Assembly: GCF_003096695.1 (NCBI RefSeq)
Contig: NZ_QEKY01000007.1
Location: 1-64,000, forward strand
Source of the DNA: Porphyromonas loveana
GTDB taxonomy: Bacteria > Bacteroidota > Bacteroidia > Bacteroidales > Porphyromonadaceae
DNA length: 64,000 bases
Direction: 5' to 3'
In this document: piece by piece, positions 7,382 through 42,710 of the stretch
How positions within the stretch are numbered: position 1 is the stretch's first letter
Layout of the letters: each line of letters starts with the position of its first letter
Translations under genes and position numbers: made by a program
The notes under the pieces: generated by a model
Told to the model about the DNA's origin: nothing
The model's input: only the letters and a program-made list of their open reading frames with translations
Database searches by the model: none

Positions 7382-7397
7382 TGTTTCACGTGAAACG
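7382..7397. promoter_or_regulatory. parS-like ParB-binding palindrome, intergenic
   Basis: TGTTTCACGTGAAACG contains a perfect 14-bp palindrome and matches the classical chromosomal parS consensus (TGTTNCACGTGAAACA) at all but the last base. It lies in the 30-base gap between mnmG and uvrC. parS sites nucleate ParB on origin-proximal DNA for chromosome segregation; the parAB genes are not in this window. Confidence 0.8.
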
Positions 7398-7411: not shown

Positions 7412-9214
7412 ATGATGACGACAGACGAACTTAGCATTATCCTTCCTACCCTGCCGGAGAAACCCGGATGCTACCAGTACTTCGATGAAGACGGGCGGAT
7501 CATATACGTGGGCAAAGCCAAAAACCTCCGTCGTAGGGTTAGCTCCTACTTTCATAAGGAGCATCACGACAGAAAAACTCGCATCCTCGTCCGTCAGATA
7601 AGGAGCATCAAATACATCGTTGTGGACAGCGAAGGCGATGCACTCCTGCTTGAGAATTCGCTCATCAAGGAGTATCAACCGCGTTACAACGTCCTGCTCA
7701 AAGACGGAAAGACATACCCCAGCATCGTAATCAAGGCGGAGGCTTTTCCTCGCATCTACGCCACTCGCGACATCAAGAAGGACGGATCGGAATACTTCGG
7801 CCCCTATCCCGGCGCACTTATTGCCAAGGGAATGCTTCAGCTCATCAAGGAGATTTACCCCATACGTACCTGCAAAATGGATCTGAGTGAAGCGAAAATA
7901 CGACAGGGACGATACCGTGTCTGCCTACAATATCACATCAGACGTTGCAAAGGTCCCTGCACCGGATTGCAAAGCGCAGACGAATACGAAAGCAATGTGG
8001 CCGAAATACGCGATCTCTTACGCGGCAACCTGCACAAACTTATACGCTCATACCGACAGCGGATGCAGGCTTACAGTGATGAATTACGGTTCGAAGAAGC
8101 ACAGTTTTGTAAGGAACGAATCAATTTGCTTGAGCGATACGAAGTCAAGCATACAGTTGTACCGCGAAAGATTGACAACGTAGATGTTTTCTCTTATGAC
8201 GAGGACGAGCACACGGCTTACATCAACTACATGCACATTGAGCACGGAGGAATCAACCGTGTGTACACGCTCGAATACAGAAAACAGATCGAAGAATCGA
8301 AAGAAGAGATGCTGGCTTCTGCGATAACTGAGCTGAGACAGCGATTCGAGAGCACCGCTCAGGAGATTATTCTCCCCTTCGATACAGGTTGGGAAACAGG
8401 AGAAAGTATGACGACTACAGTCCCGCAACGAGGAGACAAGCGGAAACTTCTCGAACTTTCAGAGAAGAATGTAGTTCAATATAAGCTTGACAAACTGAAA
8501 AGATCCGAGAAACTTAATCCCGAGCAACGCGCCTTACGCATCGTCCACGGGATCCAAAAAGATCTGCATTTGGAGCGTCCTCCCAAGCATATTGAGTGCT
8601 TCGACAACTCCAATATACAAGGAACAAGCCCCGTGGCAGCCTGCGTGGTCTTCAAAATGGGGAAGCCCAGCAAAAAAGATTACCGCAAGTTTCACGTGAA
8701 AACAGTTGAAGGTCCCAATGATTTCGCGTCAATGCAAGAAATTATCGGTCGTCGTTATTCCAGACTCATAGAGGAGAATGCTCCCCTACCCGACCTAATT
8801 GTTGTCGATGGAGGTAAGGGACAGCTCAGCTCGGCCTACGACACATTGGAACAATTGGGGCTAATCGGAAAGATTCCTATCGTAGGATTGGCCGAACGAT
8901 TGGAAGAGATTTTCTACCCCAAGGACCCAGTTCCTCTCATTTTGGACAAGAATAGCGAGACACTCAAGGTCATACAACATTTGCGCGACGAGGCACACCG
9001 CTTTGGAATCACCTTCCATCGCAACATAAGAAGCAAGAAACAAATCCACAGTGCGCTGGATGATATAAAGGGAATCGGCAAGAAAACAAAAGAAGACTTG
9101 CTCCTCCACTATAAAAGTGTGAAACGGATTCGCTTAGCAGACGAGGAAGAGCTGAGCACATTGATCGGAAAAAGCAAAGCTAAACTACTATACGAGGCAT
9201 TAAAAGAGAAGTAG
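7412..9214 (+). CDS. uvrC: Excinuclease ABC subunit C
   Basis: A 600-residue UvrC, the dual-incision nuclease of nucleotide excision repair. The GIY-YIG domain (residues about 14-95) shows PGCYQYFDEDGRIIYVGKAK and conserved R/E residues for the 3' cut. A cysteine cluster at about 150-175 (CKMDLSE, CLQYHIRRCKGPC) is followed by a UVR motif (SDELRFEEAQFCKERINLLE). The RNase H-like domain follows (IECFDNSNIQG, LIVVDGGKGQL, HRFGITFHR) for the 5' cut, and a C-terminal helix-hairpin-helix (IKGIGKKTKEDLL). The ATG at 7412 is followed by a second Met. The coding sequence itself contains a second parS-like site at 8688-8703, in the codons for KFHVKT. It sits 30 bases after mnmG and 6 before dtd, so an mnmG-uvrC-dtd-mazG-deoC run is likely. 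Confidence 0.97.
   Translation: MMTTDELSIILPTLPEKPGCYQYFDEDGRIIYVGKAKNLRRRVSSYFHKEHHDRKTRILVRQIRSIKYIVVDSEGDALLLENSLIKEYQPRYNVLLKDGKTYPSIVIKAEAFPRIYATRDIKKDGSEYFGPYPGALIAKGMLQLIKEIYPIRTCKMDLSEAKIRQGRYRVCLQYHIRRCKGPCTGLQSADEYESNVAEIRDLLRGNLHKLIRSYRQRMQAYSDELRFEEAQFCKERINLLERYEVKHTVVPRKIDNVDVFSYDEDEHTAYINYMHIEHGGINRVYTLEYRKQIEESKEEMLASAITELRQRFESTAQEIILPFDTGWETGESMTTTVPQRGDKRKLLELSEKNVVQYKLDKLKRSEKLNPEQRALRIVHGIQKDLHLERPPKHIECFDNSNIQGTSPVAACVVFKMGKPSKKDYRKFHVKTVEGPNDFASMQEIIGRRYSRLIEENAPLPDLIVVDGGKGQLSSAYDTLEQLGLIGKIPIVGLAERLEEIFYPKDPVPLILDKNSETLKVIQHLRDEAHRFGITFHRNIRSKKQIHSALDDIKGIGKKTKEDLLLHYKSVKRIRLADEEELSTLIGKSKAKLLYEALKEK
8688..8703. promoter_or_regulatory. Second parS-like site, inside uvrC
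   Basis: AGTTTCACGTGAAAAC keeps the 12-bp palindromic core TTTCACGTGAAA and differs from the parS consensus at the outer positions. It lies 1.3 kb from the first site. Clusters of parS sites near the origin, some inside genes, are normal in other bacteria. Confidence 0.6.
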
Positions 9215-18476: not shown

Positions 18477-18637
18477 CATCTTCATGAGCTGCTGCGTTGT
18501 CATACAGCTCCGGAAGCAGTAATGATACCTATGTATATCCTGCCACAAGAGGCAGAAGCAAACTAATACTTAATCACTTACTCGGATCAGTAAGAGGTAT
18601 ACTCCTACATGCGATCCAACCTAACAAACAACTAAAA

Positions 18638-21136
18638 ATGAAACATCTTCCTATTATCGGCTACATCATAGCCATTCTTTTTTCGAGCATGACAGCTTAT
18701 GCTCAGCAGACGGGCGGCTCTGTAACGGGCACTGTCGTAGATAAAAGTTCCAAAGAACCTCTTGCCTTCGCTCAAGTATTTATCAAGGGTACTACGCTGG
18801 GTACATCTACCGATGCCAGCGGTAACTATACCATCAAGGGCGTGCCTGCGGGACAGCAGACAGTCGTGGCTCGTTATATGGGTTATGGCTCTTGCGAAGA
18901 ACGCATCCATATAGAAAAAGGTAGCTCACGCCATGTGGATCTCTATCTTGCCGAAGAGACACTTTCACTCGATGGAGTAGTGGTATCTGCCAACAGAAGT
19001 GAAACCTTCCGCCGACAAGCACCTTCGCTCGTGACGGTGCTCTCACCGGAACTTTTCACCAAGACCAACTCCACCACACTGAGTCAAGGATTGAAGTTCC
19101 AACCCGGCCTTCGAGTAGAAGACAATTGCCAAAACTGTGGCTTTAACCAAGTGCGCATCAACGGATTAGAAGGAGCTTACTCGCAAATCCTCATCGACAG
19201 TCATCCCATATTCAGCTCCTTGGCAGGCGTGTATGGTCTGGAACAGCTTCCCGCCAATATGATAGAACGAGTGGAAGTGATACGTGGAGGCGGCTCAGCA
19301 CTCTTCGGTTCTAATGCCGTGGGAGGCGTCATCAATGTAATTACCAAGGAACCACTACGTAATTCGGCAGAGATCAGCCATTCGACTATGACCTTCGACC
19401 ATAACAAAGGGTGGGGGAGCTTCCAGAATACTACTCAGTTCAACGGCTCTATGCTGACGGAAGATCGTAAAGCCGGCGTCATGGTCTTCGGACAACACAA
19501 CTACCGCCCGGGACAGGACATAGACGGCGACAGCTTCACGGAACTGCCCAATCTGCGTAACCGTTCGCTGGGATTCCGTTCCTACTACAAGACGGGCCTC
19601 TACAGCAAAGCCACTCTCGAATACCATAGCATGCAGGAGTATCGCCGCGGGGGCGACAGACTGGACAGACCTCCTTTCGAAGCTCAGATAGCAGAGTACC
19701 TACAGCACTATATCAACGGCGGTAGTCTGAAGTACGATCAGGCATTCAGTGGTGGCAAAGACTTCTTCAGCCTTTATACATCGGCACAGGATGTACAGCG
19801 CAGAAGCTATTACGGTGGCGGTGATTATACCCAAGAAATGCTGAACGCTTTGCTGGAAAGCGGCAGCATCACTTCTGATCAATACCAAAATGCATTCTCG
19901 GCTCTTACTGCCTATGGTACGACAAAGGGATTCGATTTTCAGGGAGGCGGTATGTATCGTCACACCTTCGGAGAGAACTGGGACTATACCGGTGGTGTGG
20001 AATATGTACATGGCAAGCTCGATGACCGCAGCGGATACCGCCCCAACATCATCGACCAACAGACTGCTACATGGAGCCAATACGACCAACTGGAGTATAA
20101 GACAGAGCAATTTAGCGCCTTGATAGGAGGACGATTCGACTATGTGCGACTATTCCAGAACGGAGAGCGCTACATAGATCCCCTCTTCATATTCAGTCCC
20201 CGTGCCAATCTGCGCTACAATCCGCACAGAGACCTCAGCTTCCGCCTCTCATATAGCGAGGGATTCCGCGCACCTCAGTACTTCGATGAAGACCTGCACG
20301 TAGAATTGGCCGGCGGTACGCCCATCAGTCGCATCCTGTCGCCCAATCTCAAAGAAGAGCGTTCGCGAAGCCTCAGTGCCTCATTCGATTGGTACCACCG
20401 TGGCGACAACTGGCAGTTCAACCTGATGGGAGAAACCTTTGCCACCTTTATCAGCAACCAATTCAAGCCTTCCGATACCGAACAAATCATTGACGGACAG
20501 GAATGGATCGTCCGCACCATCTATAATGACAAGGAAGGGGTATCGAAAGTGTACGGTATCAATCTGGAAGGTAGGATAGCTTATAACAAGACCTTCGACC
20601 TCCAACTCGGCGGTACTTGGCAACGCAGCCTCTATGGCAGTCCCTATACGCCCGTAGAAGCAGATGCCGAGACAGGACAGGCAGCCATAACGGTGAAAGA
20701 CTACGTGCGCACTCCCAATCTGTATGGCTACTTTGTGGCTACCTATCGCCCCTCCGAGCACTCAGCCATCAACCTGTCGGGTACTTTCACCGGTAAGATG
20801 AACGTGGTACATGAAGCCTATGAGGGCGATATTCCTGCCGATCAGATAGGACCGGACGGAGCATTCGACTTTGTCCTGGACGGACAGGCATACAAGGGTT
20901 TGGCTCAGGGCTATGCCCAATTGGTCAAGACTCCTGCCTTTGCCGACATAGATATCAAGTTCAGTCATGACTTCCATTTGGGTTCTACCATGACAATAGA
21001 ACTAAACGGTGGTGTCCATAATATCATCAACAGCTACCAAAAGGATCTCGACAAAGGCCCCGGACGTGCCTCTACCTATGTCTATGGTCCCATGCAGCCG
21101 CGACGGATCTTCTTGGGTACGAAGATTAGTTTCTAA
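18638..21136 (+). CDS. TonB-dependent outer-membrane receptor
   Basis: An 832-residue receptor. The ATG at 18638 starts a signal peptide (MKHLPIIGYIIAILFSSMTAYA, then QQTGG); upstream in-frame codons add 47 unrelated residues and are rejected. Residues about 28-110 form a carboxypeptidase-regulatory-like domain (GTVVDKSSKEPLAFAQVFIKG). The plug domain follows (about 120-240) with NCQNCGFNQVRINGLEG and VEVIRGGGSALFGSNAVGGVINVITK, then a 22-strand barrel ending in RRIFLGTKISF. It imports a scarce ligand with TonB energy. The CxxC loop and the upstream His-rich protein hint at a metal or metal-complex substrate, but haem, cobalamin and chelates are all possible. A strong terminator hairpin follows. 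Confidence 0.9.
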   Translation: MKHLPIIGYIIAILFSSMTAYAQQTGGSVTGTVVDKSSKEPLAFAQVFIKGTTLGTSTDASGNYTIKGVPAGQQTVVARYMGYGSCEERIHIEKGSSRHVDLYLAEETLSLDGVVVSANRSETFRRQAPSLVTVLSPELFTKTNSTTLSQGLKFQPGLRVEDNCQNCGFNQVRINGLEGAYSQILIDSHPIFSSLAGVYGLEQLPANMIERVEVIRGGGSALFGSNAVGGVINVITKEPLRNSAEISHSTMTFDHNKGWGSFQNTTQFNGSMLTEDRKAGVMVFGQHNYRPGQDIDGDSFTELPNLRNRSLGFRSYYKTGLYSKATLEYHSMQEYRRGGDRLDRPPFEAQIAEYLQHYINGGSLKYDQAFSGGKDFFSLYTSAQDVQRRSYYGGGDYTQEMLNALLESGSITSDQYQNAFSALTAYGTTKGFDFQGGGMYRHTFGENWDYTGGVEYVHGKLDDRSGYRPNIIDQQTATWSQYDQLEYKTEQFSALIGGRFDYVRLFQNGERYIDPLFIFSPRANLRYNPHRDLSFRLSYSEGFRAPQYFDEDLHVELAGGTPISRILSPNLKEERSRSLSASFDWYHRGDNWQFNLMGETFATFISNQFKPSDTEQIIDGQEWIVRTIYNDKEGVSKVYGINLEGRIAYNKTFDLQLGGTWQRSLYGSPYTPVEADAETGQAAITVKDYVRTPNLYGYFVATYRPSEHSAINLSGTFTGKMNVVHEAYEGDIPADQIGPDGAFDFVLDGQAYKGLAQGYAQLVKTPAFADIDIKFSHDFHLGSTMTIELNGGVHNIINSYQKDLDKGPGRASTYVYGPMQPRRIFLGTKISF

Positions 21137-21180
21137 GGGAACTCACTATCCTACACGTTGTACGTGTCACGAAGCATGAG

Positions 21181-21215
21181 TCGGTTGCTCTACCTTTCAA
21201 CAGGTGAGCAACCGA
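21181..21215 (+). terminator. Terminator of the TonB receptor gene
   Basis: TCGGTTGCTC (21181-21190) pairs perfectly with GAGCAACCGA (21206-21215), with ACCT/AGGT extending the stem inside after one unpaired base, followed by TTCTTTTATT. It lies 45 bases after the stop. Confidence 0.8.
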
Positions 21216-21283
21216 TTCTTTTATTATATGATTCCTTTTCAAAAAAGAAAAATAGATATAGGAAGAATAAAGTCGGTTAATAC

Positions 21284-21292
21284 TGTGGATAA
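21284..21292 (-). promoter_or_regulatory. DnaA box 1
   Basis: Perfect TTATCCACA on the minus strand, the closest of the four to the AT-rich stretch at 21216-21275. Confidence 0.8.
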
Positions 21293-21411
21293 TCTCTGTA
21301 CGAGTAGGATTGAAGGAGTAGGGGATCAACAGGAAAAAAGCGGATATGAATAGGTTACAAACAGGTTATCGACTGTTATCGTCACTCAATATCAGTGAGA
21401 TAACAGCAGAA

Positions 21412-21420
21412 TGTGGATAA
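21412..21420 (-). promoter_or_regulatory. DnaA box 2
   Basis: Perfect TTATCCACA on the minus strand, immediately preceded by TTATCG motifs at 21366 and 21376 that may be weaker sites. Confidence 0.8.
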
Positions 21421-21466
21421 GTCAGATGGCCGAACAAATACCGGACTCTTTCCTACTCTTCGATTC

Positions 21467-21475
21467 TGTGGATAA
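21467..21475 (-). promoter_or_regulatory. DnaA box 3
   Basis: Perfect TTATCCACA on the minus strand, 55 bases from box 2. Confidence 0.8.
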
Positions 21476-21618
21476 ACCTCGGCAAAAGTCGATAAGAACT
21501 TGTTGCTAACTTTTTGTGCATTTTCGGATGATGTTCTTATATGGCATTTGTTTCGGGATATGCAAGCAAATTGGCGAGTTTTTTTCATCTAATTATCAAC
21601 AGGCTTATCGACAGCTCT

Positions 21619-21627
21619 TGTGGATAA
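21619..21627 (-). promoter_or_regulatory. DnaA box 4
   Basis: Perfect TTATCCACA on the minus strand, with two near-matching boxes in the opposite orientation at 21593-21613 just before it. Confidence 0.8.
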
Positions 21628-21679
21628 CCATTGTATCCGAACGATGAATAGACGATATTTGCAACAGACTTAGTATAGT

Positions 21680-22420
21680 ATGCTCATCAATACAAAGGCC
21701 ATCGTCTTACGTCACGCTGCTTATAACGACAGCTATAGTGTAGCCCAGCTCTTCGTGAGGGAGTGCGGTAGGGTGTCTTATCTGATAGCGCGGAGCCCTA
21801 AGCGTGCCAAAGGGGGTGGGGGAGTGCGCCTCTTGATGTCGCCACTGTACGAACTGGAGATAACGGCAGAGCATAAGCCGCATCGCGATCTGCACTTCAT
21901 TCGGGAGGCAAAGCTGTGTGCCGGTAGGGCACGGATCCAATCCGATCCCGTGAAGAACAGTGTAGCGCTTTTCTTGGCTGAGTTCTTATATCTGACTCTT
22001 CGGCTACCGGAAGCAGATACAGAGGTGTATGACTTCATTGCCGACTCGATAAACAGGCTTGAATCAGCCGATTGCTCTGCAGCTAATTTCCATCTCGTTT
22101 TTCTCTATCGGCTGCTTTCTCCTATGGGACTCATACCGGATATGCAACTCGACGGACGACAGAGAAGCGAATGGTTCGACCCCGCAGACGGACGATTTGT
22201 ATCCCACCCGCCTACACATGGCAAGGGTATTCCTCCGCAGGAAGCTGCCTATATGCCGTTATTCAGTCGGATCACCTATGATAATATGTGGGCTTTCCGA
22301 CTCTCACGGCAAGAGCGTAGGCGAGTGTTAGACTATCTGGTGGATTATTATCGCTTCCATCTGCCCGGGTTTCCACAGCTCAAAACCCCCGATATCCTCT
22401 CTGCACTGTTTGATAAGTAG
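21680..22420 (+). CDS. recO: DNA repair protein RecO
   Basis: A 246-residue recombination mediator that works with RecF and RecR to load RecA on SSB-coated single strands. The N-terminal OB fold begins MLINTKAIVLRHAAYNDSYSVAQLFVRECGRVSYLIARSPKR (split here only by domain, residues 1-42), followed by LLMSPLYELEITAEHKP. The helical C-terminal part contains FLAEFLYLTLRLPE and FHLVFLYRLLSPMG. No zinc-finger cysteines are seen, as in many Bacteroidetes RecO proteins. Its ATG lies 52 bases past the last DnaA box, so it is the first rightward gene from the putative origin. pgm follows after 66 bases with its own promoter. Confidence 0.93.
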   Translation: MLINTKAIVLRHAAYNDSYSVAQLFVRECGRVSYLIARSPKRAKGGGGVRLLMSPLYELEITAEHKPHRDLHFIREAKLCAGRARIQSDPVKNSVALFLAEFLYLTLRLPEADTEVYDFIADSINRLESADCSAANFHLVFLYRLLSPMGLIPDMQLDGRQRSEWFDPADGRFVSHPPTHGKGIPPQEAAYMPLFSRITYDNMWAFRLSRQERRRVLDYLVDYYRFHLPGFPQLKTPDILSALFDK

Positions 22421-25355: not shown

Positions 25356-25835
25356 TTATGCGATTCCTACCATTGCGGGAACGCTACCGAAGATAAGGAT
25401 GGCAACGAGGAGACCCAAGATAGCGTAAAGCTCGGGGAATACGGCCATCACCATCGTGGCACCGAATACGTTGTGACCACCACCGATAGCTTGGATACCG
25501 TTGGCACATACCTGAGCCTGACGAATGGCAGACATCAAACCTACTACACCGAGAGCAACACCGGCGAAGAAAATAGCCCAGCCGGCGAGCATGGTCAGAG
25601 CATTGGCAGCTACGAGCTGGGTAACAAGGTTAGAGGCCATGAAGAAGCCTACGAAACCGTAGAGACCCTGAGAACTGGGAAGAGCGCTAAGACCGATGTA
25701 GAGACCCAGAGAATCGGGGTTCTTCTTCATCGCACCAACGGTAGTGTTACCGCAGATAGTTACGCCAATGGCACTTCCGATACCGGTCAATGCAACCATC
25801 AATGCAATACCGAGATAAGCTAACATTTGTTCCAT
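25356..25835 (-). CDS. V-type ATPase subunit K (rotor proteolipid)
   Basis: A 159-residue, four-helix membrane proteolipid that forms the ion-carrying rotor ring. It is a fused double hairpin. The helix-4 carboxylate is Glu135 in VFPELYAILG, while helix 2 has Gln56 in ALPSSQGLYG. The positions L52, S55, Q56, Q106 and E135 fall at the same spacings as the Na+ ligands L61, T64, Q65, Q110 and E139 of Enterococcus hirae NtpK, so Na+ coupling is likely (inference). It is the last gene of the operon, 54 bases after subunit I, and is followed by a terminator. Confidence 0.95.
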   Translation of the reverse strand: MEQMLAYLGIALMVALTGIGSAIGVTICGNTTVGAMKKNPDSLGLYIGLSALPSSQGLYGFVGFFMASNLVTQLVAANALTMLAGWAIFFAGVALGVVGLMSAIRQAQVCANGIQAIGGGHNVFGATMVMAVFPELYAILGLLVAILIFGSVPAMVGIA

Positions 25836-25889
25836 AATACTTTTTGTGTTGTTTAGTTGTTATGATTTTTTGAATTGTTTCTTTTGTGA

Positions 25890-27722
25890 TTAGGAGCGTT
25901 TGAACGGCGTGTATTCGTTGCCGCCACCCTCGAATTCGCTGTTCTTGTAGAACTCTACGAACGTCAAACGTATGGGGTGTACCAGCGAGCTGATCATACA
26001 GAGTCCGATGTTGAGACCGTGACCGAACAGCAGGATGATAGCCATCACGAGGAAGTTGAGCCCCGTAGGCAGCCCTCCGCCGATCTGTACGGCAAGATTA
26101 TTGAACACTCCTCCCAGAATACCGCCGGTGAGGCCGATGGCAAAGAGACGGATGTAGGACAACGTATCACCTAACAAACCGGAAGCGGTGTTGTAAGTGG
26201 CCCAAAGACCGGCTCCGAAGTTCATGAAGATGTTCTTGCCCGGGCTGTTGTAGAAGAGGGCTATCAAGAGAGCTAAACCAGTGATACCGGTGAAGGCTAA
26301 TGCTACAACACCGAGCTCGGGCTTGCTTTCAGCAAGGGGCTTGATGACAAACGAGAGCGCTCCAAAGAGGATGAATGTGGCCCACGCATAGGTGGCAAGG
26401 GCATACTTGAATCCTTTTTGTATGTGCGTCTTGTAGCCGGCTACATACTTGGCAAATATGATTTGGAGAAGACCCAGCACAACGGAGAGCTTCATCATAT
26501 TGTCCTGATTGAGGAAGTAGTCGTTACGGACAGAGCCCAAGAGGTCGTCTCCGGCCCATGGCATTACCATACCGAATACTGTACCCATCAGCGAACCAAC
26601 GACGGCCGTCGTGCCACCCAACCATTGCAACATGCCGCAGAGCGACTTGATGGCACCGGAGTCGGACTTGATCTTGGCTATGGTGGCTATTACGAAAAGC
26701 AAGAGGCCGTAACCGCCATCACCGAAACAGAGGGCGAAAAACAGCATGAAGAACGGAGCCAACAGGGGCGTGGGGTCCAACTCGCTGTAGTTAGGCATGG
26801 AGTACATCTTGGTGATGGGCTCGAAGAGGCGGGCGAAGGCGTTGTTCTTCAACTTGATGGGCACACTGTCTTCTTCCTTGATCTCCATCTTCTCGATGTA
26901 GTAGCCTTCGGCTGCGATAGCCTGCTCCATGGGAGCGGCATCGGCAGTAGGTACCCAGCCTTCGAGGAGCATGAGTTTGTCGTCGGCCTGACCTTCAGCT
27001 TGCACCATGGCATTGGTGAAAGCGAATTTATCGGCCATCAACATATCGTAAGCCGTGAGTTCGCCCATGCGATTGTCTGCAAAAGCTGTCTTGGCGGCTG
27101 CATTAGCCTGCAATTCGGCTTCCAATGCTTCCTGCTGTTTGTACAGAGTTGACAGATCGTAGTCGGGCAATTTGATGCGCTCGGCATCAGGCTTGGGATC
27201 ATGTTTGTGTCCTACGGTCACGAAATAGACCGTAGAGCGTACAGTATTGATCTCAATAGCTCCATAGATTTCGGCCCATTCGGGCTTGTAAGCCGATGCA
27301 GAAGAGGCATAGAAGTTCATCTCGTAGCCGGCGCTACTTAGGCGTGCAATGGAACTGAAGTCGAACTGACCCCAGAGTTCCATTTGTTCTATTTCTCGCT
27401 TCTTGGCCACTATGGCATTCTTGAGGCGTACTTCTTCGGCAAAAAGATGCTGCACATCCTTTACCGCCTGCTCTCCGGCAGTTTCTGTCACCACGGGAGT
27501 GGTTGTCTGTGCCGGTGCGTTCTCGCTTTTATAGGGGGCGAGCATACGCATCGTTTCAGCTATGCCTTTGCGAAGAAGAAGGAGATTCTGCAATTCGGCA
27601 ACATCCTTGGTCGCCTTTGTTTCCTGGATGTGTACCACACCGGTGTTACGCAGCTTCTCAAGGAAGCTCTCATACTCGCGGTGGTAGATCAGGAAAAGGT
27701 ATTTATTCATTGCGGTAATCAT
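25890..27722 (-). CDS. V-type ATPase subunit I
   Basis: A 610-residue stator subunit (relative of eukaryotic subunit a). The N-terminal 310 residues are a soluble coiled-coil-rich arm (KKREIEQMELWGQF, LYKQQEALEAELQAN). The C-terminal 300 residues are membrane-embedded, with about seven or eight segments beginning at LLAPFFMLFFALCFGDGGYGLLLF, a characteristic subunit I signature, and including the DTLSYIRLFAIGLTGGILG helix with the essential arginine. The start overlaps the subunit D stop by four bases (ATGA), implying translational coupling. It provides the ion half-channels next to rotor subunit K, encoded immediately downstream. Confidence 0.95.
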   Translation of the reverse strand: MITAMNKYLFLIYHREYESFLEKLRNTGVVHIQETKATKDVAELQNLLLLRKGIAETMRMLAPYKSENAPAQTTTPVVTETAGEQAVKDVQHLFAEEVRLKNAIVAKKREIEQMELWGQFDFSSIARLSSAGYEMNFYASSASAYKPEWAEIYGAIEINTVRSTVYFVTVGHKHDPKPDAERIKLPDYDLSTLYKQQEALEAELQANAAAKTAFADNRMGELTAYDMLMADKFAFTNAMVQAEGQADDKLMLLEGWVPTADAAPMEQAIAAEGYYIEKMEIKEEDSVPIKLKNNAFARLFEPITKMYSMPNYSELDPTPLLAPFFMLFFALCFGDGGYGLLLFVIATIAKIKSDSGAIKSLCGMLQWLGGTTAVVGSLMGTVFGMVMPWAGDDLLGSVRNDYFLNQDNMMKLSVVLGLLQIIFAKYVAGYKTHIQKGFKYALATYAWATFILFGALSFVIKPLAESKPELGVVALAFTGITGLALLIALFYNSPGKNIFMNFGAGLWATYNTASGLLGDTLSYIRLFAIGLTGGILGGVFNNLAVQIGGGLPTGLNFLVMAIILLFGHGLNIGLCMISSLVHPIRLTFVEFYKNSEFEGGGNEYTPFKRS

Positions 27723-28333
27723 GCCATCACCTCCTCTTCGTTGTTACGTTTTTCCATATTGGCACGCATAATCTTCTGCGAGGACTTGGACAGGCTCTCT
27801 TCGTCCTCTATGTAGCGCTTGATCTTGCGTATGGCATCTTTATAGCCGGGGATTTGCACTTTCTCGAAGAGATTGACTTTCTGGGTCGTCTTCTTACGTG
27901 CATATTCGAGGAACTCCAACTTGAGACCGAGAAATTCAGCCTCGATTCCCGTATGAGCCAGGTTCTTCAGCAGATCAATGCCTTCGGCGAACCAAGAAGG
28001 TGCATTGAACAGACTGAATGGCTTAATGGTGTATGAAATATCGTCCAGTACGGGAACGATTACGCCCGCGACCTTCTTCGTAGAAAGCTTGACGCCCTCT
28101 ACGCTGATGAGGTCGGGTTTGAATTCGTTCCATAGGCCCACCATATTGCGGTAGCCCACGATTTCTTCTTCCAGTTGGCGTTCCAATCGCTCCACCTCGT
28201 CCTTTGTGCGCTTCACTTCCAGACGCAGTGCGCTCTCCTTGCTCTTGATCGTGGGCAAGGTGCGCTCTCGCATCTTCAGCTGTTTTTCTTGCTGCTGGAG
28301 AGAGGTTTTGTTGTATTGAAACTTAATAGCCAT
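27719..28333 (-). CDS. V-type ATPase subunit D
   Basis: A 204-residue central-shaft subunit that links the A/B hexamer to the rotor ring. It begins MAIKFQYNKTSLQQQEKQLKMRERTLPTIKSKE and has long N- and C-terminal helices of the expected antiparallel coiled coil, with the central region predicted globular. The C-terminal RKIKRYIEDEESLSKSSQKIMRANMEKR stretch is typical. It follows subunit B after 16 bases and overlaps subunit I by 4. No subunit F gene, which usually pairs with D, is seen in the operon. Confidence 0.93.
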   Translation of the reverse strand: MAIKFQYNKTSLQQQEKQLKMRERTLPTIKSKESALRLEVKRTKDEVERLERQLEEEIVGYRNMVGLWNEFKPDLISVEGVKLSTKKVAGVIVPVLDDISYTIKPFSLFNAPSWFAEGIDLLKNLAHTGIEAEFLGLKLEFLEYARKKTTQKVNLFEKVQIPGYKDAIRKIKRYIEDEESLSKSSQKIMRANMEKRNNEEEVMA

Positions 28334-28349
28334 TGTATCGCAAGGTTAT

Positions 28350-29669
28350 TTATTTCTTCCAGTAAGTGTCCACAAGCTGTTGCTTGATGTTCACTTCGGC
28401 CGGTTTGAAGTGCTTAGCGAATAGCTCCCATGCCGTATCTAACATCTCCGTGGTGTTCACGTTCACGTCGATGGCCAAGAGTTGGCGTGAGTAGTCATTG
28501 GCAAATTCGAGAGCGCGGTTGTCGTAGTCTGTCAGGTCGAAACCGTTCTCCATCTTGGTCTGTGCATTGGCAGCGTCGGAGAAGAGACGCACGGCGGCAT
28601 TCATCACCTGTGGGTGGTCTTCGCGAGTCTTCTTGCCGATCACGAGCTGTTTCAGACGAGAGAGGCTTCGGAAGGGGTCCACGATTACCTTACCGACGTT
28701 GCTGTCGCGACGGAGATAGAGCTGACCTTCGGTGATATAACCCGTATTGTCAGGCACGGCATGCGTGATGTCACCACCGGAGAGAGTGGTCACAGCGATA
28801 ATCGTGATAGAACCTCCGTCGGGGAACTGTACCGCTTTCTCGTAGATCTTGGCCAAGTCTGAGTAGAGCGAACCGGGCATAGAGTCCTTAGAAGGGATCT
28901 GGTCCATACGGTTCGATACGATGGCCAAGGCATCAGCATAGTTGGTCATATCGGTGAGCAGAACAAGCACCTTCTCGTGCTTCTCAACGGCAAAGTATTC
29001 GGCAGCAGCCAATGCCATGTCAGGCACGAGGATACGCTCTACCGAGGGGTCTTCGGTGGTGTTGATGAAGCTCACGATGCGGTCGAGTGCACCAGCATTG
29101 CTAAATGTATTCTTGAAGAAGAGGTAGTCGTCATTGGTCATACCCATACCACCGAGGATAATCTTGTCACTCTCGGCACGCAGAGCCACCATGGCCATTA
29201 CCTGGTTGAACGGCTGGTCGGGGTCGGCGAAGAAAGGAATCTTCTGTCCCGTTACGAGCGTATTGTTCAAGTCGATACCGGCGATACCCGTAGCGATCAG
29301 CTCCGAAGGCTGCTTACGACGCACGGGATTCACTGACGGACCACCGATCTCTACTTCCTTACCTTCGGGCTGGGGACCACCATCGATGGGCTCACCATAG
29401 GCGTTGAAGAAGCGACCGGCCAGTTGTTCGCTCACTTTGAGCGAAGGAGCCTTACCCATGAAAATCACTTCGGCATTGGTGGGGATACCTTCCGTACCGG
29501 CAAATACCTGCAAGGTAACGTCCTCGCCTTGGATACGCACCACCTGCGCCAATCGGCCGTCGATAGTGGCCAACTCTTCATTACCTACACCTGTGGCACG
29601 CAGCGAGCACGTAGCCTTGGTGATGTTGGTAATCTTTGTATATATTTTCTGAAAAGCTTGTTTTGACAT
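28350..29669 (-). CDS. V-type ATPase subunit B
   Basis: A 439-residue nucleotide-binding but non-catalytic subunit of the V1 head. Recognisable blocks include RFFNAYGEPIDGGP, IATGIAGIDLNNTLVTGQKIPFFADP (about 125-152), DMTNYADALAIVSNRMDQIPS and the C-terminal DTAWELFAKHFKPAEVNI. The Walker A lysine motif is absent, as expected for B subunits. It lies 11 bases after the subunit A stop and is co-transcribed with it, giving stoichiometric A and B for the A3B3 head. Confidence 0.96.
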   Translation of the reverse strand: MSKQAFQKIYTKITNITKATCSLRATGVGNEELATIDGRLAQVVRIQGEDVTLQVFAGTEGIPTNAEVIFMGKAPSLKVSEQLAGRFFNAYGEPIDGGPQPEGKEVEIGGPSVNPVRRKQPSELIATGIAGIDLNNTLVTGQKIPFFADPDQPFNQVMAMVALRAESDKIILGGMGMTNDDYLFFKNTFSNAGALDRIVSFINTTEDPSVERILVPDMALAAAEYFAVEKHEKVLVLLTDMTNYADALAIVSNRMDQIPSKDSMPGSLYSDLAKIYEKAVQFPDGGSITIIAVTTLSGGDITHAVPDNTGYITEGQLYLRRDSNVGKVIVDPFRSLSRLKQLVIGKKTREDHPQVMNAAVRLFSDAANAQTKMENGFDLTDYDNRALEFANDYSRQLLAIDVNVNTTEMLDTAWELFAKHFKPAEVNIKQQLVDTYWKK

Positions 29670-29680
29670 GACTATCTATG

Positions 29681-31435
29681 TTATTTGATGCGTTCGGCCA
29701 GGATAGCGTCCAATTCTTTATTGTACTTATCGTAATCGGCACTCTTGAATTCGGAATAGTTCACTTGCTTGAAGATGTTGATCACGCGCTTGAAGTAATC
29801 CGATACTTCCAGGAAGTCTTCGAAGTCGAACTCTGTGCGGCAGATGTCCGACACCTTGCTGAGCATGAGTTCCTGGCGCTCCAACGAACTGTTGCAGTCC
29901 ACGCTGTCGAATGCATCCTGCTGGAGGATTACGAAGTCTATAAGCTCGGCCTTCCAGAAGGTCACGTGATAGTTCACGGGCACACCGTCGTCACCGAGAA
30001 TGTTGATCTGTTCGGCGATCTCCTTACCCTGATGCAGACGCATCTTGAGGTCGTTCACTTTCGTGATCCAGTCAGAGGCAATGTGATTGGAGATATAGCT
30101 TTCGAATTCTGGATACTCCAAGTACTTGGAATAACTGTCAATGGGGTTCACGGCCGGATAACGTTTGCGGTCAGCACGATTCTGCTCAAGAGCGTAGAAG
30201 CAACGTGCTACCTTCTTGGTACTCTCCGTCACAGGCTCCTTGAGGTTACCACCGGCAGGAGATACTGTACCGATAAAAGTTACTGATCCCGTAGCACCGT
30301 TGTTCAGGTACACAAACCCTGCACGAGCATAGAAGTTGGCTACGATAGCCGACAAGTCCATCGGGAATGCATCAGGTCCGGGGAGCTCTTCCAAGCGGTT
30401 CGACATTTCACGGAGAGCCTGTGCCCAACGAGAAGTAGAGTCGGCCATCATCAGTACGCGGAGACCCATCGAGCGATAGTATTCAGCGATGGTCATGGCC
30501 GTATATACAGATGCTTCACGAGAGGCCACGGGCATGTTCGAGGTATTGGCGATAATGATCGTACGCTCCATCAGCTTACGGCCGGTGTGCGGGTCGTTCA
30601 AGTGGGGAAATTCTGCGAAGATTTCCACAACCTCATTGGCACGCTCACCACAAGCAGCGATGATCACGATGTCAGCTTCGGCCTGCTTAGAGATGGCGTG
30701 CTGGAGCACAGTCTTACCCGTACCGAAGGGTCCGGGGATGAAGCCCGTACCGCCTTCTACGATGGGGTTGAAGGTATCAATGATGCGAATACCAGTTTCG
30801 AGCAGTTTGAAGGGACGCGGTTTCTCGCGATAGCAAGGGATGGCACGCTTCACGGGCCACTTCTGCACCATCGTTACATTATGATCCTTGCCGTCTGCAT
30901 CGGTGACTACGGCTATTACATCATTCACCTTGTACTGACCGGCCTGAGCCACGCTCTTCACTTTGTAACCACCTTCGAATACGAAAGGTACCATGATTCT
31001 GTGCGGCTGAAAGTTCTCCGTCACCTCACCAAGCCAAGAGCCGGCGATCACGTTGTCGCCCACCTTGGCCAACGGCTTGAAGTCCCACAATTTGTCATCA
31101 TCGAGGGCGGCAGTGTAGTCGCCACGCTTGAGGAAGACCCCGTCCATCTTGTCCAGATCGTGTTGCAGACCGTCATAGTTCTTTGAGAGCATACCGGGGC
31201 CGAGCGTTACTTCGAGCATGCTGCCCACAAACTCAGCCTCGTCTCCTACGTGCATACCGCGGGTACTCTCGAATACCTGCACATAAGCATTCTTACCGAT
31301 CACCTTGATCACCTCGCTCATGAGCTTGGTGCCATTGACATCGATATAGCAAATTTCATTTTGGGAAACCGGCCCATCGACCTCCACGGTCACGAGGTTG
31401 GACACAATCCCCTTAACAACACCTTTTGTAGCCAT
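29681..31435 (-). CDS. V-type ATPase catalytic subunit A
   Basis: A 584-residue catalytic ATPase subunit. The P-loop GPFGTGKT is at 235-242 with Lys241. The catalytic region continues CGERANEVVEIFAEFPHL and MADSTSRWAQALREMSNRLEELPGPDAFP, and the A-specific insertion of about 90 residues (about 110-200) separates it from subunit B. Length is normal. It follows the DUF2764 gene and precedes subunit B. It either hydrolyses ATP to pump ions or makes ATP from an ion gradient; the Na+-type rotor signature in subunit K bears on which ion. Confidence 0.97.
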   Translation of the reverse strand: MATKGVVKGIVSNLVTVEVDGPVSQNEICYIDVNGTKLMSEVIKVIGKNAYVQVFESTRGMHVGDEAEFVGSMLEVTLGPGMLSKNYDGLQHDLDKMDGVFLKRGDYTAALDDDKLWDFKPLAKVGDNVIAGSWLGEVTENFQPHRIMVPFVFEGGYKVKSVAQAGQYKVNDVIAVVTDADGKDHNVTMVQKWPVKRAIPCYREKPRPFKLLETGIRIIDTFNPIVEGGTGFIPGPFGTGKTVLQHAISKQAEADIVIIAACGERANEVVEIFAEFPHLNDPHTGRKLMERTIIIANTSNMPVASREASVYTAMTIAEYYRSMGLRVLMMADSTSRWAQALREMSNRLEELPGPDAFPMDLSAIVANFYARAGFVYLNNGATGSVTFIGTVSPAGGNLKEPVTESTKKVARCFYALEQNRADRKRYPAVNPIDSYSKYLEYPEFESYISNHIASDWITKVNDLKMRLHQGKEIAEQINILGDDGVPVNYHVTFWKAELIDFVILQQDAFDSVDCNSSLERQELMLSKVSDICRTEFDFEDFLEVSDYFKRVINIFKQVNYSEFKSADYDKYNKELDAILAERIK

Positions 31436-31444
31436 TATTCTGAT

Positions 31445-32377
31445 TTATTTCTTTTGATTTCTTTTGAACTCTTCCAAGGACTCTGCACTCTCGTGTTTGA
31501 GTGTCTTGACGATGTGGCGGAAGGTCTCTTCGCCAGTTCTCTCGTCCAGATTCACCCAACGTTCGATGATCGTCAGCTCCAGATAGTAGCATAGCAGACG
31601 TTCGATGGAGAATACGCGGTTGAATACGGACTCTTCCAGCCACTCCCAGCGCAGTACATCCAGCTGACGTTCTCGCTTGGTGATGTCCGTCTCTTCACCT
31701 ACAGCCAGCAGCGACGACATGGCGGAGAAGTCCTCACTCAGGTCGAAGTCGCGCGAACGCGAAGTGCGCAGCTTATTTTCTATTTCGCCGGTCCCCACGA
31801 TGTAGTTGATGGGGTTCCATCCGAGTTTGCGACAGGTGATGGCAGCCAGGATGTTCTTAATGTGCAGGTTGAGGCCGAACCACTCTTCCAAGAACTCGTT
31901 GCCGCACTGCATGGCATACTCGTAGTAGTACATGGCCAGACGGTCTTCGTCGGAGATGGGCAGACGTTCCCGTCCTTCTTCTTCCTCGCTTTGGACGTTC
32001 TGTGCATGCTGGTCGTTTTCTTCGCCCAGAGCTTTCTCGGCCAACTTCTCAGCCATGAAGGTCTGGAAATAGGGCGGCAGTCCTGCCATGCGGGGGACTG
32101 TGCGTTTCTCGCGATAGACGGCCATTATGGCGTCCAGGTTGTCGTAGGAGAAGAGAGTGGGTTGAGCTTCGGCGGTCTTGGCAGCTTCGCTATCCTCGAG
32201 ATAGTCGAGGAGGAAGTGGTTCTCCTGCTCCCAAAGCAGGAGATCGAAGAGTTTGCCGTCGGCTTGGCTAAGGATGGGTCTCAGCTCTTCCAGGAACTGA
32301 GGGGACGTAAACGGCAGTTTCCGATCTTCCACAGCGATGTTGGGCAGACCGGCTACAGTTGCGTAATATTTAGCCAT
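31445..32377 (-). CDS. DUF2764 family V-ATPase-associated protein
   Basis: A 310-residue soluble, largely helical and acidic protein that opens AKYYATVAGLPNIAVEDRKLPFTSPQF. Proteins of this family occur between subunits E and A in V-ATPase operons of Bacteroidetes, spirochaetes and chlamydiae, where subunit C is missing, so it is thought to replace the C (d-like) coupling subunit. That role is inference from position and composition; the helices with Trp and Arg in the C-terminal half (LRWEWLEESVFNRVFSIERLLCYYLELTI) would suit it. It lies three bases after subunit E and nine before subunit A. Confidence 0.88.
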   Translation of the reverse strand: MAKYYATVAGLPNIAVEDRKLPFTSPQFLEELRPILSQADGKLFDLLLWEQENHFLLDYLEDSEAAKTAEAQPTLFSYDNLDAIMAVYREKRTVPRMAGLPPYFQTFMAEKLAEKALGEENDQHAQNVQSEEEEGRERLPISDEDRLAMYYYEYAMQCGNEFLEEWFGLNLHIKNILAAITCRKLGWNPINYIVGTGEIENKLRTSRSRDFDLSEDFSAMSSLLAVGEETDITKRERQLDVLRWEWLEESVFNRVFSIERLLCYYLELTIIERWVNLDERTGEETFRHIVKTLKHESAESLEEFKRNQKK

Positions 32378-32380
32378 GAT

Positions 32381-32971
32381 TTAGAAAAGCATTTCCACCA
32401 ATCGGGGACGCAGGAAGCTTTTGAAGAGATTGATAAATTCTTCTTCTCCGAATTGGATTTTGTAAGAACCGTCTTGGGGTTGGATCGTGTAGGCCACTTG
32501 TTGGTTGTTCACCTCCTTGATGGTCACCTTGCTGTCGAGCAGTTCCTTGGCATTGCTTTCAAAATAGGATTTCAGTGCAGCAGCATTCTGAGTGGAGATG
32601 ACGATTTTCTCGCCCGATGCCCAGTTTTTGGCCATCTCGAGCATCATCTGCTGCATGAATTCGGGGTTGGCTGTGGCGGCTTTTACGTTCGCCGTTGAGA
32701 GCGTACCCGAGATTTGATTGACAATAGTACTCTTGAGCGACTCCAGCATCTGACCGGCATACAGTTTCAGCTCCGACTCAGTGTTCTGCTGAAACTCAGT
32801 CGCTTTCTTCTTTGCATCGCTCACAATGCGCTCGGCCTCGGCCTTGGCATTATTGATTGTCTCTGCGCTTTTGGCTTCGGCCTCAGCGACAATTTTCGCG
32901 GCTTGTTCGTTGCCTTTCTCAACGCCTTCGCGGTAAATCTTGTCAGTTAGTTCCTGGATTTTGGAGTCCAT
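32381..32971 (-). CDS. V-type ATPase subunit E
   Basis: A 196-residue peripheral-stalk subunit. The N-terminal half is a long charged helix rich in Ala, Glu and Lys (AAKIVAEAEAKSAETINNAKAEAERIVSDAKKKA, residues about 24-57) and the C-terminal half a mixed domain (VAYTIQPQDGSYKIQFGEEEF). It normally pairs with subunit G/H, for which no gene is seen here. It is the first gene of the seven-gene operon E-DUF2764-A-B-D-I-K, with a well-formed promoter 50 bases upstream. Confidence 0.92.
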   Translation of the reverse strand: MDSKIQELTDKIYREGVEKGNEQAAKIVAEAEAKSAETINNAKAEAERIVSDAKKKATEFQQNTESELKLYAGQMLESLKSTIVNQISGTLSTANVKAATANPEFMQQMMLEMAKNWASGEKIVISTQNAAALKSYFESNAKELLDSKVTIKEVNNQQVAYTIQPQDGSYKIQFGEEEFINLFKSFLRPRLVEMLF

Positions 32972-33715: not shown

Positions 33716-36700
33716 CTATTCAGCGAGGGAGATCATATGGCGATCGGTGGCACGGAGTTTGCCGCTCTTGATGAGCTGGTCGATGGCATAGTCCACGTGT
33801 GCCTGTACCTTGGCTCCTGTGCGGGCAAAACCGAGCTGTTGGGCTGTGTGCTTGCGCAGCTCTATAAGGGGCATGGCGAGCTGCTCTTCCATGACGTAGC
33901 GGGCAGCATTCATGACTTCGACGGTGGGTATCTCGGTAATGTCCCTCCCTGCGCCGGAGCGATAGCCCTCGAAACCGTCTGCGCTACTGCGATCTATCCA
34001 GAAAGTACGACTCTCTGCAAAGGAGATGGGATCGATATGATACTTCTCCGTCAGCGCATCCACGAGGCTGCGTAGGCGTGTCGAGACGCGTCCGATGCCG
34101 TAGTATTCGGCCAGGCGCCTGCAGAGGAGCGTGTCGGTAATGGGTTGTTCCGTTTGGATGATGCTTTGGATTGTTTTCCGTACTTCGGTCTTCATCTTAA
34201 AGAGGGTAGCCATGTCCATGCCTTCTTTTGTCGGCTTTGAAGCAGCAAACGAACGGTAAGCCTGCTCCTTGGTACCGGTCTCGCGGAGCGGGGCTGCCGA
34301 TTCGACAGAGAATTTCTTGACCGTGGGGGCTGCTGCCTCAGGGGCCGCGGGTGCATGGCTCAGGAGCGACTCCACCTGTTCTGCGATGCGTGAGAGTATG
34401 CGGTCGGGGTTCTCCATCCAGTCTACTGTCCACACGCGATGTATATTCCAGCCCAGCATACGGAGTACTCCGGGCTGTACGATCTCTCTGTCACGGGTAG
34501 TCTTGGTTTCGTAGTAGCTTTTTCCGTCAGAAAGGATGCCAAGGATATATTGGTCGGCTTGATGCGGATGGCGGATGCCGAGGTCGATCTTGAAATTGGA
34601 GCATCCGATCATCGTATCTACCTTATAACCCCGAGCGCGGAGAGCTTTTGCAAGATCGGCCACCACATCACTCTCGGCGCGGAACTGTGCGCTGCGGTTG
34701 GGCAGGTGAGACAGTCCGTGCTTGGCAAACTCCAAGAGCAGACGCAGGCCTTCGACACCAAGAGAATTGGTGCGTTTGAGGTCGATCTGTTCGGGGTTGA
34801 GCGACGTGTATATGATCATTTCGTATCGGGCTCGCGATACGGCTACGTTCAGTCGGCGTTCGCCTCCTTTGTTGTTGAGCGGACCGAAGTTCATGGACAC
34901 TTTCCCGTCTTTGTCCGGTCCGTATCCGATGGAGAAGAGAATGATGTCGCGCTCGTCGCCCTGTACGTTCTCCAAATTCTTGATGAAGATCGGCTCGGCA
35001 CTCTGTAGGGCTTTTTGCTCCAGCTCAGGGCGGTTGCTGAGGGCATCCATCAGTATATCGTCTATCAGGTGCTGTTGCGCTTGGCTGAACGAAACCACGC
35101 CGATGCTTCGCTCCGAGAGGACGGGATCTTCCAGGCGGCGGATGATTTCGTCCACGACAGCTTGTGCTTCTTTCTTGTTGCTTCGCGTCGCCGACTTGTC
35201 GTATACGCCTTCAACCTGTACCATTCGCACCTTCGACACGCGGTCGTCCACAGAGGGGAAGGTGAAGAGCTTGCCGTCGTAGTAGCGACTGTTGCTAAAG
35301 GCGATGAGGCTCTCATGCTTGCTCCTGTAGTGCCAGGTGAGATAGCGGGACGGCATCGAGAGCGAGATGCAGTCGTCGAGAATGCTTTCCATGTCGTCTA
35401 TGTAGGCCTCCTCTTCGTTGCTCTGAGTCGTTGTGAAGAAGCTGGTGGGGGGCATTTGCTTGGGGTCGCCTACGACGACGAGTGCTTTGCCTCGGGCAAT
35501 GGCGCCTACTGATTCGCTTGTGGGCATTTGGGAAGCTTCGTCAAAGATCACGAGGTCGAATTTCTCTGCATTGAGGTCGATGAACTGTGCTACCGACAAG
35601 GGACTCATCAGTATACAGGGGCAGAGCTTGGGCAAGAGGGTCGGGATTTGGTCGATAATCTTGCGAATAGATGTGCCACGACCTCCGTTGGCGATATTCC
35701 GTTTGAGTATCCCTACTTCCGAACCATTGGCTGCTGCCATGGTCAGCTTGGGTATGTTGGCTGCCAGACGGCAGTATAGTTCGTGCTTGGTGAGCTCTTG
35801 GAAGTTAGCGGTGAGGACTCTGTATTTCTCAATGACAGCCTCGAATAAGATGCCGTTGAAGAGTTTGAGCGAGGGATCGGCGGCGATGGCTTCCTCTGCT
35901 ATGCGTTTGTAAAGACTGCGGGCAAAGGCGTCGGCCGCAGAAGCTGCTGTACTATTCTTTCCGCTCCGGCATATCCTCTCGATGGCTGGTGCGGCACCGA
36001 CATCCAAGAGCGCGCGCTTACAGAGAACCCATTGCGACCAATCCTTGATCTGTGGTAGGTGCTCTATCCAAGTGGACAGCTTGCTACCGATCGCTTGGTA
36101 GCCTGTCGGCAAGCTGGTAGTAACGGATTGATGCAGGACGGAGAGGGTCTGCTCCAGCCGGACAATGCAGTCACATATCTCTTGCAGTCGGGGCCTGTGG
36201 CTGTCGAGCATGGGCTGTCGATATTCACCGAGGCGCACCGCCATGGCTTGGCGGATGGTAGCATAGTCCTGTCCTGTTCGGGAGGTATGACTCACGAGTA
36301 GCTGTAGCAGCTGCTCTGAGTGACTCAGATTTTCTTTGGCTTGCTGCCATTCCTCTTCGGTGCCCACGCCTTTGGTGCCGAAGAGGCGGAGCAGATCGGC
36401 TTCTTCGCGAGCTACCGTTTCATTCAGCTCTTGGTAGGAGCACAAGCGTTCGAGGAGCATAGGGATGTCGGCCTTGGCAAGTGCGGGGCGATGGCGTCGC
36501 AGACGTTTGACAAAGCCTCCCGCTGCAAAGAAACGGGGGAGGAACCATTTCATTTCGATGCCTTGCCACTCTGCTCGCAGTTGGCGGGCATCTTCAACGA
36601 ATACAGAGGTAGCATAGTCGCGACTAAGGGCTTCGTGCAGACGCAGACGCTCGGCTGCCGTGTCGAGGAGCGTATGCATACGGGCACTCGCTTGATGGTT

Positions 36701-39508: not shown

Positions 39509-39515
39509 ATCGTTC

Positions 39516-40709
39516 CTATGCTTGTGGGATTTCGTCCCGACGAGGAAGCACGATGCGGAAGGTCGTACCTATGCCGGGCTCGGATTGCTTCACGCCGATT
39601 CTCCCTTTGTGATACTTTTCTATGATACGTTTTGCCAGAGACAGCCCCAGTCCCCATCCTCTTGTCTTGGTAGAATAACCGGGGCGGAATACATCGCGCA
39701 CCTTTCCTTTGGGTATTCCCTTGCCGGTATCGGCTATTTCGATGACGGCTTGGGTTGCTTTTGCGCGGAGGTCGATGGAGATACTTCCTTTTCCATCCAT
39801 GGCATCGACGGCGTTCTTGATCATATTCTCGATCACCCAACTGAAGAGCGGTGCCGACAGTGCCACTATAACGACTTCGTCCGGCATTCGCAGATGTATC
39901 TGGACTTGTCTCGAAATGCGATAGCGCATGTAGTCCGTGATTTGCCCCAACGCCTCGCGAATGTCCTGGTTTTCGGTCTTGGGCTCTGAACCTACCTTCT
40001 GAAACCGTTCGGCTATCATCCGCAGTCGCTCCACATCCTTCTCCATCTCTTGCGTGATGGATGCATCCACGTCGGAGGTTTTCAGCAGCTCCACCCACGC
40101 CATCAAGCTGGAAATAGGGGTGCCAAGCTGGTGTGCCGTTTCCTTGGACAAACCGTTCCATACGCGGTTTTGCTCCGATCGGCGTTCGGCCAGCAGCGCC
40201 ATGAGGGAAATGCCGAGGAAGATAAACATCACACTCAGCGCTACATAGGGCAGCGCCAAGAGTCGTCGGAGCGTCAGACTGTCCGAGTAATAAAGGAACT
40301 GCGGCTTGTCATCGTTGATTTCGATGCGTATGGGCGGGTAACCCTCTTTGAAGTGGCTGAGTTTCTTGTGGAGGTAGGCTTGTTCAGATTTACCGGCAGG
40401 TATGGTGATATTATTATAGGAGATGATAGAGTCTCGTCCATTGCATAAGATCACAGGGATACTTTCGTTGGACTGGATGATCTGCAGCACAAGATCATTG
40501 GCGAGTACCACGTCGTTTTCCGAGGCAGCCGCTTTCGTAGCTTGTGCCCATAGCTCGATCTTCTGTCGCTCTTCTCCTGCCATTTTGTCGATAAGCTTAT
40601 CCGACGCGATGAGCGTAAAGATGGCAATAGCCATAGCCACGAAGATAAAAGAGACGCGCATCGATATTCGACTGCGCTCGAAGAAGGTCTGATTACCGCT
40701 CCAACCCAT
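39516..40709 (-). CDS. Sensor histidine kinase
   Basis: A 397-residue membrane kinase: one segment at about 18-36, a short periplasmic domain (about 45-150), a second segment at about 152-174, then the kinase core. The phosphoacceptor is His193 in LSKETAHQLGTP. The ATP-binding boxes are ENMIKNAVDAMDG (N), DTGKGIPKG (G1) and GWGLGLSLAKRI (G2). No response regulator is adjacent, so it is an orphan. It begins 66 bases after the LtaS-like gene and ends seven bases before the giant helicase, so it is likely part of the same minus-strand transcript. Its signal cannot be inferred. Confidence 0.92.
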   Translation of the reverse strand: MGWSGNQTFFERSRISMRVSFIFVAMAIAIFTLIASDKLIDKMAGEERQKIELWAQATKAAASENDVVLANDLVLQIIQSNESIPVILCNGRDSIISYNNITIPAGKSEQAYLHKKLSHFKEGYPPIRIEINDDKPQFLYYSDSLTLRRLLALPYVALSVMFIFLGISLMALLAERRSEQNRVWNGLSKETAHQLGTPISSLMAWVELLKTSDVDASITQEMEKDVERLRMIAERFQKVGSEPKTENQDIREALGQITDYMRYRISRQVQIHLRMPDEVVIVALSAPLFSWVIENMIKNAVDAMDGKGSISIDLRAKATQAVIEIADTGKGIPKGKVRDVFRPGYSTKTRGWGLGLSLAKRIIEKYHKGRIGVKQSEPGIGTTFRIVLPRRDEIPQA

Positions 40710-40775
40710 TCTTAGTCACTGTTGTAATGTGTTCAGGGGTGCAAGTTAGGAATTTTACTTCGGAGCTGTTCCCCT

Positions 40776-42707: not shown

Positions 42708-42710
42708 CGA

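What the first reader, a model, noticed from the sequence alone, without database searches (positions are those of the whole stretch)
21216..21679. Probable chromosome replication origin between a TonB receptor and recO, away from dnaA
Seen: four perfect, same-orientation DnaA boxes (21284, 21412, 21467, 21619) in 344 bases, near-matches between them, an AT-rich flank at 21216-21275, and two parS-like sites 13-14 kb away. Counted by hand in sample 60-base rows, the plus strand has C over G to the left (14761: 22/12; 20221: 22/13) and G over C to the right (23401: 21/14; 36481: 23/15), independent of gene strand. Known: TTATCCACA is the high-affinity DnaA site, and leading strands are usually G-rich. 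Inference: this is oriC, the ribosomal super-operon lies on the right replichore and is co-oriented with replication, and the mnmG-deoC run lies on the lagging strand. dnaA is not next to it, so gene-position-based origin annotation would miss it.
Basis: partly seen in the sequence, partly recalled or inferred. Interest (0 to 1): 0.85.

Follow-up and report, generated by a model that had tools for sequence, protein, structure and literature searches.

The report
Chromosome replication origin upstream of recO
The stretch just before the recO gene is very probably where this Porphyromonas chromosome starts to replicate; it is built like a classical DnaA-driven origin but lies far from dnaA, an arrangement already known to be common in this phylum.

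Summary
Four perfect TTATCCACA boxes, all on the minus strand, lie in 344 bp at 21284-21627. They are 4 of only 24 in the 2.28 Mb genome; chance would give about 2e-7 such clusters. The AT-rich flank (21214-21273) is among the least stable 0.03% of sampled sequence and borders the first box. The cumulative GC-skew minimum of contig C7 is at 21240, and the sign change holds for both gene strands and for intergenic DNA. The genome's only two parS-like sites lie 12.6-13.9 kb away. The locus is conserved in P. gulae and in a complete 2,354,886-bp genome (probably P. gingivalis ATCC 33277): box positions are kept while box letters have drifted. In that genome the skew minimum is 480 bp upstream of recO, 178 kb from dnaA. 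No box cluster lies upstream of recO in 17 other Porphyromonas or 28 other Bacteroidales genomes. This is an ordinary DnaA-type oriC away from dnaA, published as common in Bacteroidetes. The useful correction is that a P. gingivalis reference paper places oriC at dnaA. There is no experimental proof here (no marker frequency, no DnaA footprint).

The parts
21214..21273 (.). Candidate DNA unwinding element: AT-rich stretch, 80% AT in 60 bp, T-rich on the + strand at its left end
   Evidence: Least stable 60-mer of the region by nearest-neighbour energy; 0.03% of 505 kb of sampled own sequence is as unstable. Largely conserved in two related species.
21178..21218 (+). Inverted repeat (GAGTCGGTTGCTC / GAGCAACCGATTC) followed by T-rich DNA; probable transcription terminator of the TonB receptor gene at the origin edge
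   Evidence: Arms 92% complementary, 15-nt loop; nearly invariant in three species. The simple terminator scan did not list it; its loop limit is 8.
21284..21292 (-). DnaA box TTATCCACA next to the AT-rich flank (R1-like)
   Evidence: same position in P. gulae and G154 as TTATCAACA.
21366..21374 (+). Weak DnaA box TTATCGACT
   Evidence: TTATCCACT / TTATTCACT at the same column in G154 and P. gulae.
21412..21420 (-). DnaA box TTATCCACA
   Evidence: TTTTCCACA in both relatives.
21467..21475 (-). DnaA box TTATCCACA
   Evidence: TTATTCACA in G154, TTATCCACA in P. gulae.
21487..21495 (-). Doubtful weak box TTATCGACT
   Evidence: 2 mismatches here, 3 in both relatives, same column.
21593..21601 (+). 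DnaA box TTATCAACA (1 mismatch)
   Evidence: TTTTCAACA in relatives.
21605..21613 (+). DnaA box TTATCGACA (1 mismatch), identical in all three species
21619..21627 (-). DnaA box TTATCCACA
   Evidence: TTTTCCACA in relatives.
21137..21679 (.). Whole intergenic origin region between TonB receptor and recO, including the skew minimum at 21240
18497..21136 (+). TonB-dependent outer-membrane receptor (left neighbour)
   Evidence: NCBIfam TonB models, E about 1e-26, below curated cut-offs.
21680..22420 (+). recO (right neighbour)
   Evidence: TIGR00613, E 2.7e-7, below cut-off; a homologue is found in 146 of 149 genomes of the order.
7382..7397 (.). parS-like site TGTTTCACGTGAAACG directly after mnmG
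   Evidence: same place relative to the origin in G154 and P. gulae.
8688..8703 (.). Second parS-like site AGTTTCACGTGAAAAC inside uvrC

Best explanation
The 21.14-21.68 kb intergenic region is the chromosomal oriC. DnaA, made from a gene elsewhere on the chromosome, binds the strong same-orientation boxes and the weaker interspersed ones, oligomerises towards the AT-rich flank beside the R1-like box at 21284, and opens the adjacent 21214-21273 element, where the helicase is loaded. Two forks then leave in both directions. The right fork runs co-directionally through recO and the ribosomal operon; the left fork runs past the parS sites, which tie the origin region to ParB. Shown here: the motif cluster, low duplex stability, skew switch, parS proximity and positional conservation. 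Inferred: DnaA binding, unwinding, helicase loading and the initiation itself.
For: The box cluster is unique in the genome. The cumulative GC-skew minimum of C7 is at 21240 and the keto-skew minimum at 21498; the shift appears in both gene strands and in intergenic DNA. The least stable DNA of the region borders the first box. The only parS-like sites of the genome are within 14 kb, and the same holds in G154 and P. gulae; parB is present on C15. The orthologous locus keeps the box positions at about -397, -269, -214, -76 and -62 from recO in two related species. In the complete genome G154 the GC-skew minimum over 495 contiguous kb, including dnaA, is at 2,176,677, 480 bp before recO, and the coarse skew maximum lies near 1.09 Mb. 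The organism's DnaA aligns to E. coli DnaA domain IV (1J1V) with GGRNHATVLHGCR against GGRDHTTVLHACR, so TTATCCACA is a plausible target.
Against: No replication data. Skew is weak (about -0.035 to +0.05). A likelihood change-point on the whole 64 kb prefers 32 kb, pulled by the strongly skewed right part, although on 1-33 kb and 1-42.9 kb it falls at 21240. Only 21 kb of contig lie to the left. Keto-skew in G154 does not have its wide-range minimum at this locus. The G154 cluster has no perfect box. No clear DnaA-trio was found.
Confidence: 0.93

Rival explanations
1. A DnaA-titration or DnaA-reactivation locus (like datA or DARS of E. coli) that binds DnaA but does not initiate.
For: Clusters of DnaA boxes occur at such loci (own knowledge). 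Boxes here are spread over 344 bp.
Against: It coincides with the GC-skew minimum in two diverged genomes, a very unstable flank and the only parS sites nearby.
Confidence: 0.03
2. oriC is at dnaA, as P. gingivalis genome maps assume, and this cluster is a DnaA-regulated promoter of recO.
For: A published P. gingivalis map places oriC at the first base of dnaA (PMC5771137). Two other Porphyromonas have a pair of perfect boxes at dnaA.
Against: C1 around dnaA has one-sided positive skew. In G154 the GC-skew minimum is 178 kb from dnaA. No clustered boxes at dnaA in the sampled own sequence. The cluster is far larger than a promoter needs.
Confidence: 0.03
3. A former or accessory origin: the motifs and skew record an origin that is no longer the main one.
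For: Skew is slow to change; the boxes in G154 are all imperfect.
Against: Boxes are perfect in the window species and box positions are conserved, which suggests current selection.
Confidence: 0.01

Closest known systems
DnaA-dependent oriC of bacteria (E. coli oriC as type)
   Same: Cluster of TTATCCACA boxes, an AT-rich unwinding-type element directly left of an R1-oriented box, weaker boxes in between, intergenic position, skew minimum.
   Different: Boxes are spread over about 344 bp and four of them are perfect and in one orientation; IHF/Fis sites and a GATC/SeqA system were not tested.
oriC of other Bacteroidetes, e.g. Prevotella intermedia large chromosome (PMC4755523)
   Same: Multiple DnaA boxes at a GC-skew transition, dnaA not nearby; the authors state this is common in the phylum.
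   Different: Neighbouring genes of that origin were not compared; recO adjacency was found here only in the P. gingivalis/P. gulae/window group.

Membership tests
Bacterial DnaA-type oriC | Cluster of DnaA boxes well above chance | tested here: met
   4 of 24 genome-wide perfect boxes in 344 bp plus two 1-mismatch boxes; 1.9e-7 expected.
Bacterial DnaA-type oriC | AT-rich, easily melted element adjacent to the boxes | tested here: met
   21214-21273, about 0.03% tail of sampled own sequence.
Bacterial DnaA-type oriC | GC-skew switch from C-rich to G-rich at the site | tested here: met
   C7 minimum at 21240, gene-strand independent; G154 minimum 480 bp before recO. The own genome could only be sampled, and its contigs are unordered.
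Bacterial DnaA-type oriC | Intergenic and conserved between related species | tested here: met
   Alignment with P. gulae and G154.
Bacterial DnaA-type oriC | DnaA-trio beside the boxes | tested here: inconclusive
   Only short W-A-R runs, AAAAAGAAA at 21242 and TAATAAAAG on the minus strand at 21226.
Bacterial DnaA-type oriC | Origin-proximal parS (usual companion, not strictly defining) | tested here: met
   Only parS-like sites of the genome, 12.6-13.9 kb away.
Bacterial DnaA-type oriC | Replication starts here and DnaA binds | not testable with these tools
   Needs marker frequency, ChIP or footprinting.
dnaA-adjacent oriC subtype | Next to dnaA (or dnaN) | tested here: not met
   dnaA at C1:75086 on another contig; 178 kb away in G154.

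The most novel reading that the evidence does not exclude
Within Porphyromonas the origin has changed its gene neighbourhood: recO adjacency is private to the P. gingivalis group. Inside that group box positions are fixed while box strength turns over, from four perfect boxes here to none in the probable P. gingivalis genome, which would suggest that spacing is under stronger selection than the affinity of single boxes.
Probability: 0.4. Interest if true: 0.45.

Novelty: new member of a known kind. Interest (0 to 1): 0.35.

Why it matters
It gives a concrete, testable oriC for the P. gingivalis group, where genome maps place oriC at dnaA. Copy-number growth estimates, strand-bias analyses and DnaA work depend on the right coordinate. 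It does not change the general picture of bacterial origins.

Tried and rejected
The single scan of genome contigs with RecO returned only P. gulae DSM 15663. Box pairs at G162:230 kb and G070:C3:236 kb fall in coding sequence and were not taken as origins. Rfam found no RNA family in the window. The P. gingivalis ATCC 33277 genome paper is not held. A whole-window likelihood change-point gave 32 kb rather than 21 kb; I give more weight to the cumulative minimum and the gene-strand-controlled values, but this is a weakness.

Full report
Observation. With TTATCAACA (+21593) and TTATCGACA (+21605) the cluster has six boxes of at most one mismatch. The genome (2,275,291 bp, 39 contigs) holds 24 perfect boxes against 22 for the reversed control word, so the word is not enriched; what is unusual is that four lie in 344 bp. 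About 2e-7 such clusters are expected by chance. In 505 kb of sampled own sequence the best other 400-bp window scores 3 against 10 here.

Flank. The least stable 60-mer of the region is 21214-21273 (80% AT); about 0.03% of sampled own positions are as unstable. It lies directly left of the box at 21284, which reads TGTGGATAA on the plus strand. From my own knowledge of E. coli oriC, the AT-rich 13-mers and R1 have the same order and orientation. An inverted repeat at 21178-21218 separates it from the TonB receptor gene.

Skew. On C7 (124 kb read) the cumulative GC-skew minimum is at 21240 and the keto-skew minimum at 21498. The shift is independent of gene strand: third-position skew moves by about +0.23 in plus-strand genes and +0.16 in minus-strand genes, and intergenic skew goes from -0.061 to +0.133. 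A likelihood change-point gives 21240 on 1-33 kb and on 1-42.9 kb, but 32 kb on the whole window, so the skew alone is not sharp. The contig with dnaA (C1) is positive in every sampled stretch from 0 to 220 kb, including around dnaA at 75 kb.

parS. The genome has only two sites within one mismatch of GTTTCACGTGAAAC: 7383 and 8689, right after mnmG and inside uvrC. The same two sites are present in G154 (2,162,123 and 2,163,429, about 14 kb left of its cluster) and in P. gulae. A parB gene is on contig C15.

Conservation. P. gulae DSM 15663 (L060; G155 has the same sequence here) and the single-contig genome G154 (2,354,886 bp; by length, from memory, P. gingivalis ATCC 33277) have the orthologous locus; RecO is 71-73% identical. 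Eight box-like columns are shared: 21284-, 21366+, 21412-, 21467-, 21487- (doubtful), 21593+, 21605+, 21619-. The letters drift (TTATCAACA, TTTTCCACA, TTATTCACA), and G154 has no perfect box, but the positions stay. In G154 the 400-bp window with six boxes upstream of recO is the best in 1.1 Mb sampled. Over 495 contiguous kb spanning dnaA, its GC-skew minimum is at 2,176,677, 480 bp before recO; dnaA is at 409, 178 kb away. Coarse sampling of the whole chromosome puts the skew maximum near 1.09 Mb. The keto-skew there does not have its regional minimum at this site.

Outside the group. No box cluster lies within 1.5 kb upstream of recO in 17 other Porphyromonas or in 28 other Bacteroidales. 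Where the origin sits in those species was not settled.

DnaA. The window's genome has one DnaA. Its C-terminal domain matches E. coli DnaA domain IV (structure 1J1V) at E 1e-13, with GGRNHATVLHGCR against GGRDHTTVLHACR.

Mechanism. Shown: motif cluster, melting-prone flank, skew switch, parS proximity, conservation. Inferred: DnaA assembly on the boxes, opening at 21214-21273, helicase loading and two forks. By the same logic the V-type ATPase and anti-phage genes to the right, on the minus strand, are head-on.

Known or new. The Prevotella intermedia genome paper predicts an oriC with multiple DnaA boxes at a skew transition away from dnaA and states that oriC is commonly far from dnaA in Bacteroidetes, citing DoriC (PMC4755523). 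So this is a new member of a known kind. The practical point is that a P. gingivalis reference paper draws oriC at the first base of dnaA (PMC5771137), which the G154 data contradict.

Noticed in passing
window 33716-45263 (-): Large protein (33716-39508) matching NCBIfam anti-phage protein ProA (1957 bits, over cut-off), with further minus-strand genes beside it (39516-45263), two of which (643 and 850 aa) have no NCBIfam match: a probable defence operon 12-24 kb from the origin, head-on to replication.
   Followed up: no
window 25356-32971 (-): V-type ATPase operon (subunit I at 25890-27722) on the right replichore, transcribed against the fork.
   Followed up: no
L062 (G154:C1 2176760-2177095): The probable P. 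gingivalis ATCC 33277 origin has six boxes of one mismatch and no perfect TTATCCACA, so exact-word searches would miss it.
   Followed up: yes
G070:C2:269501-269780 and G162:C1:1904902-1905179: Two other Porphyromonas have a pair of same-orientation perfect DnaA boxes about 270 bp apart beside dnaA; may be autoregulation or origin.
   Followed up: partly
G157:C1:2905073-2905177 (L173): Three perfect and one near DnaA box in 105 bp, but at no skew minimum of the stretch read.
   Followed up: partly
G000:C15:14800-15333 (L186): parB lies on a different contig from the only parS sites.
   Followed up: no
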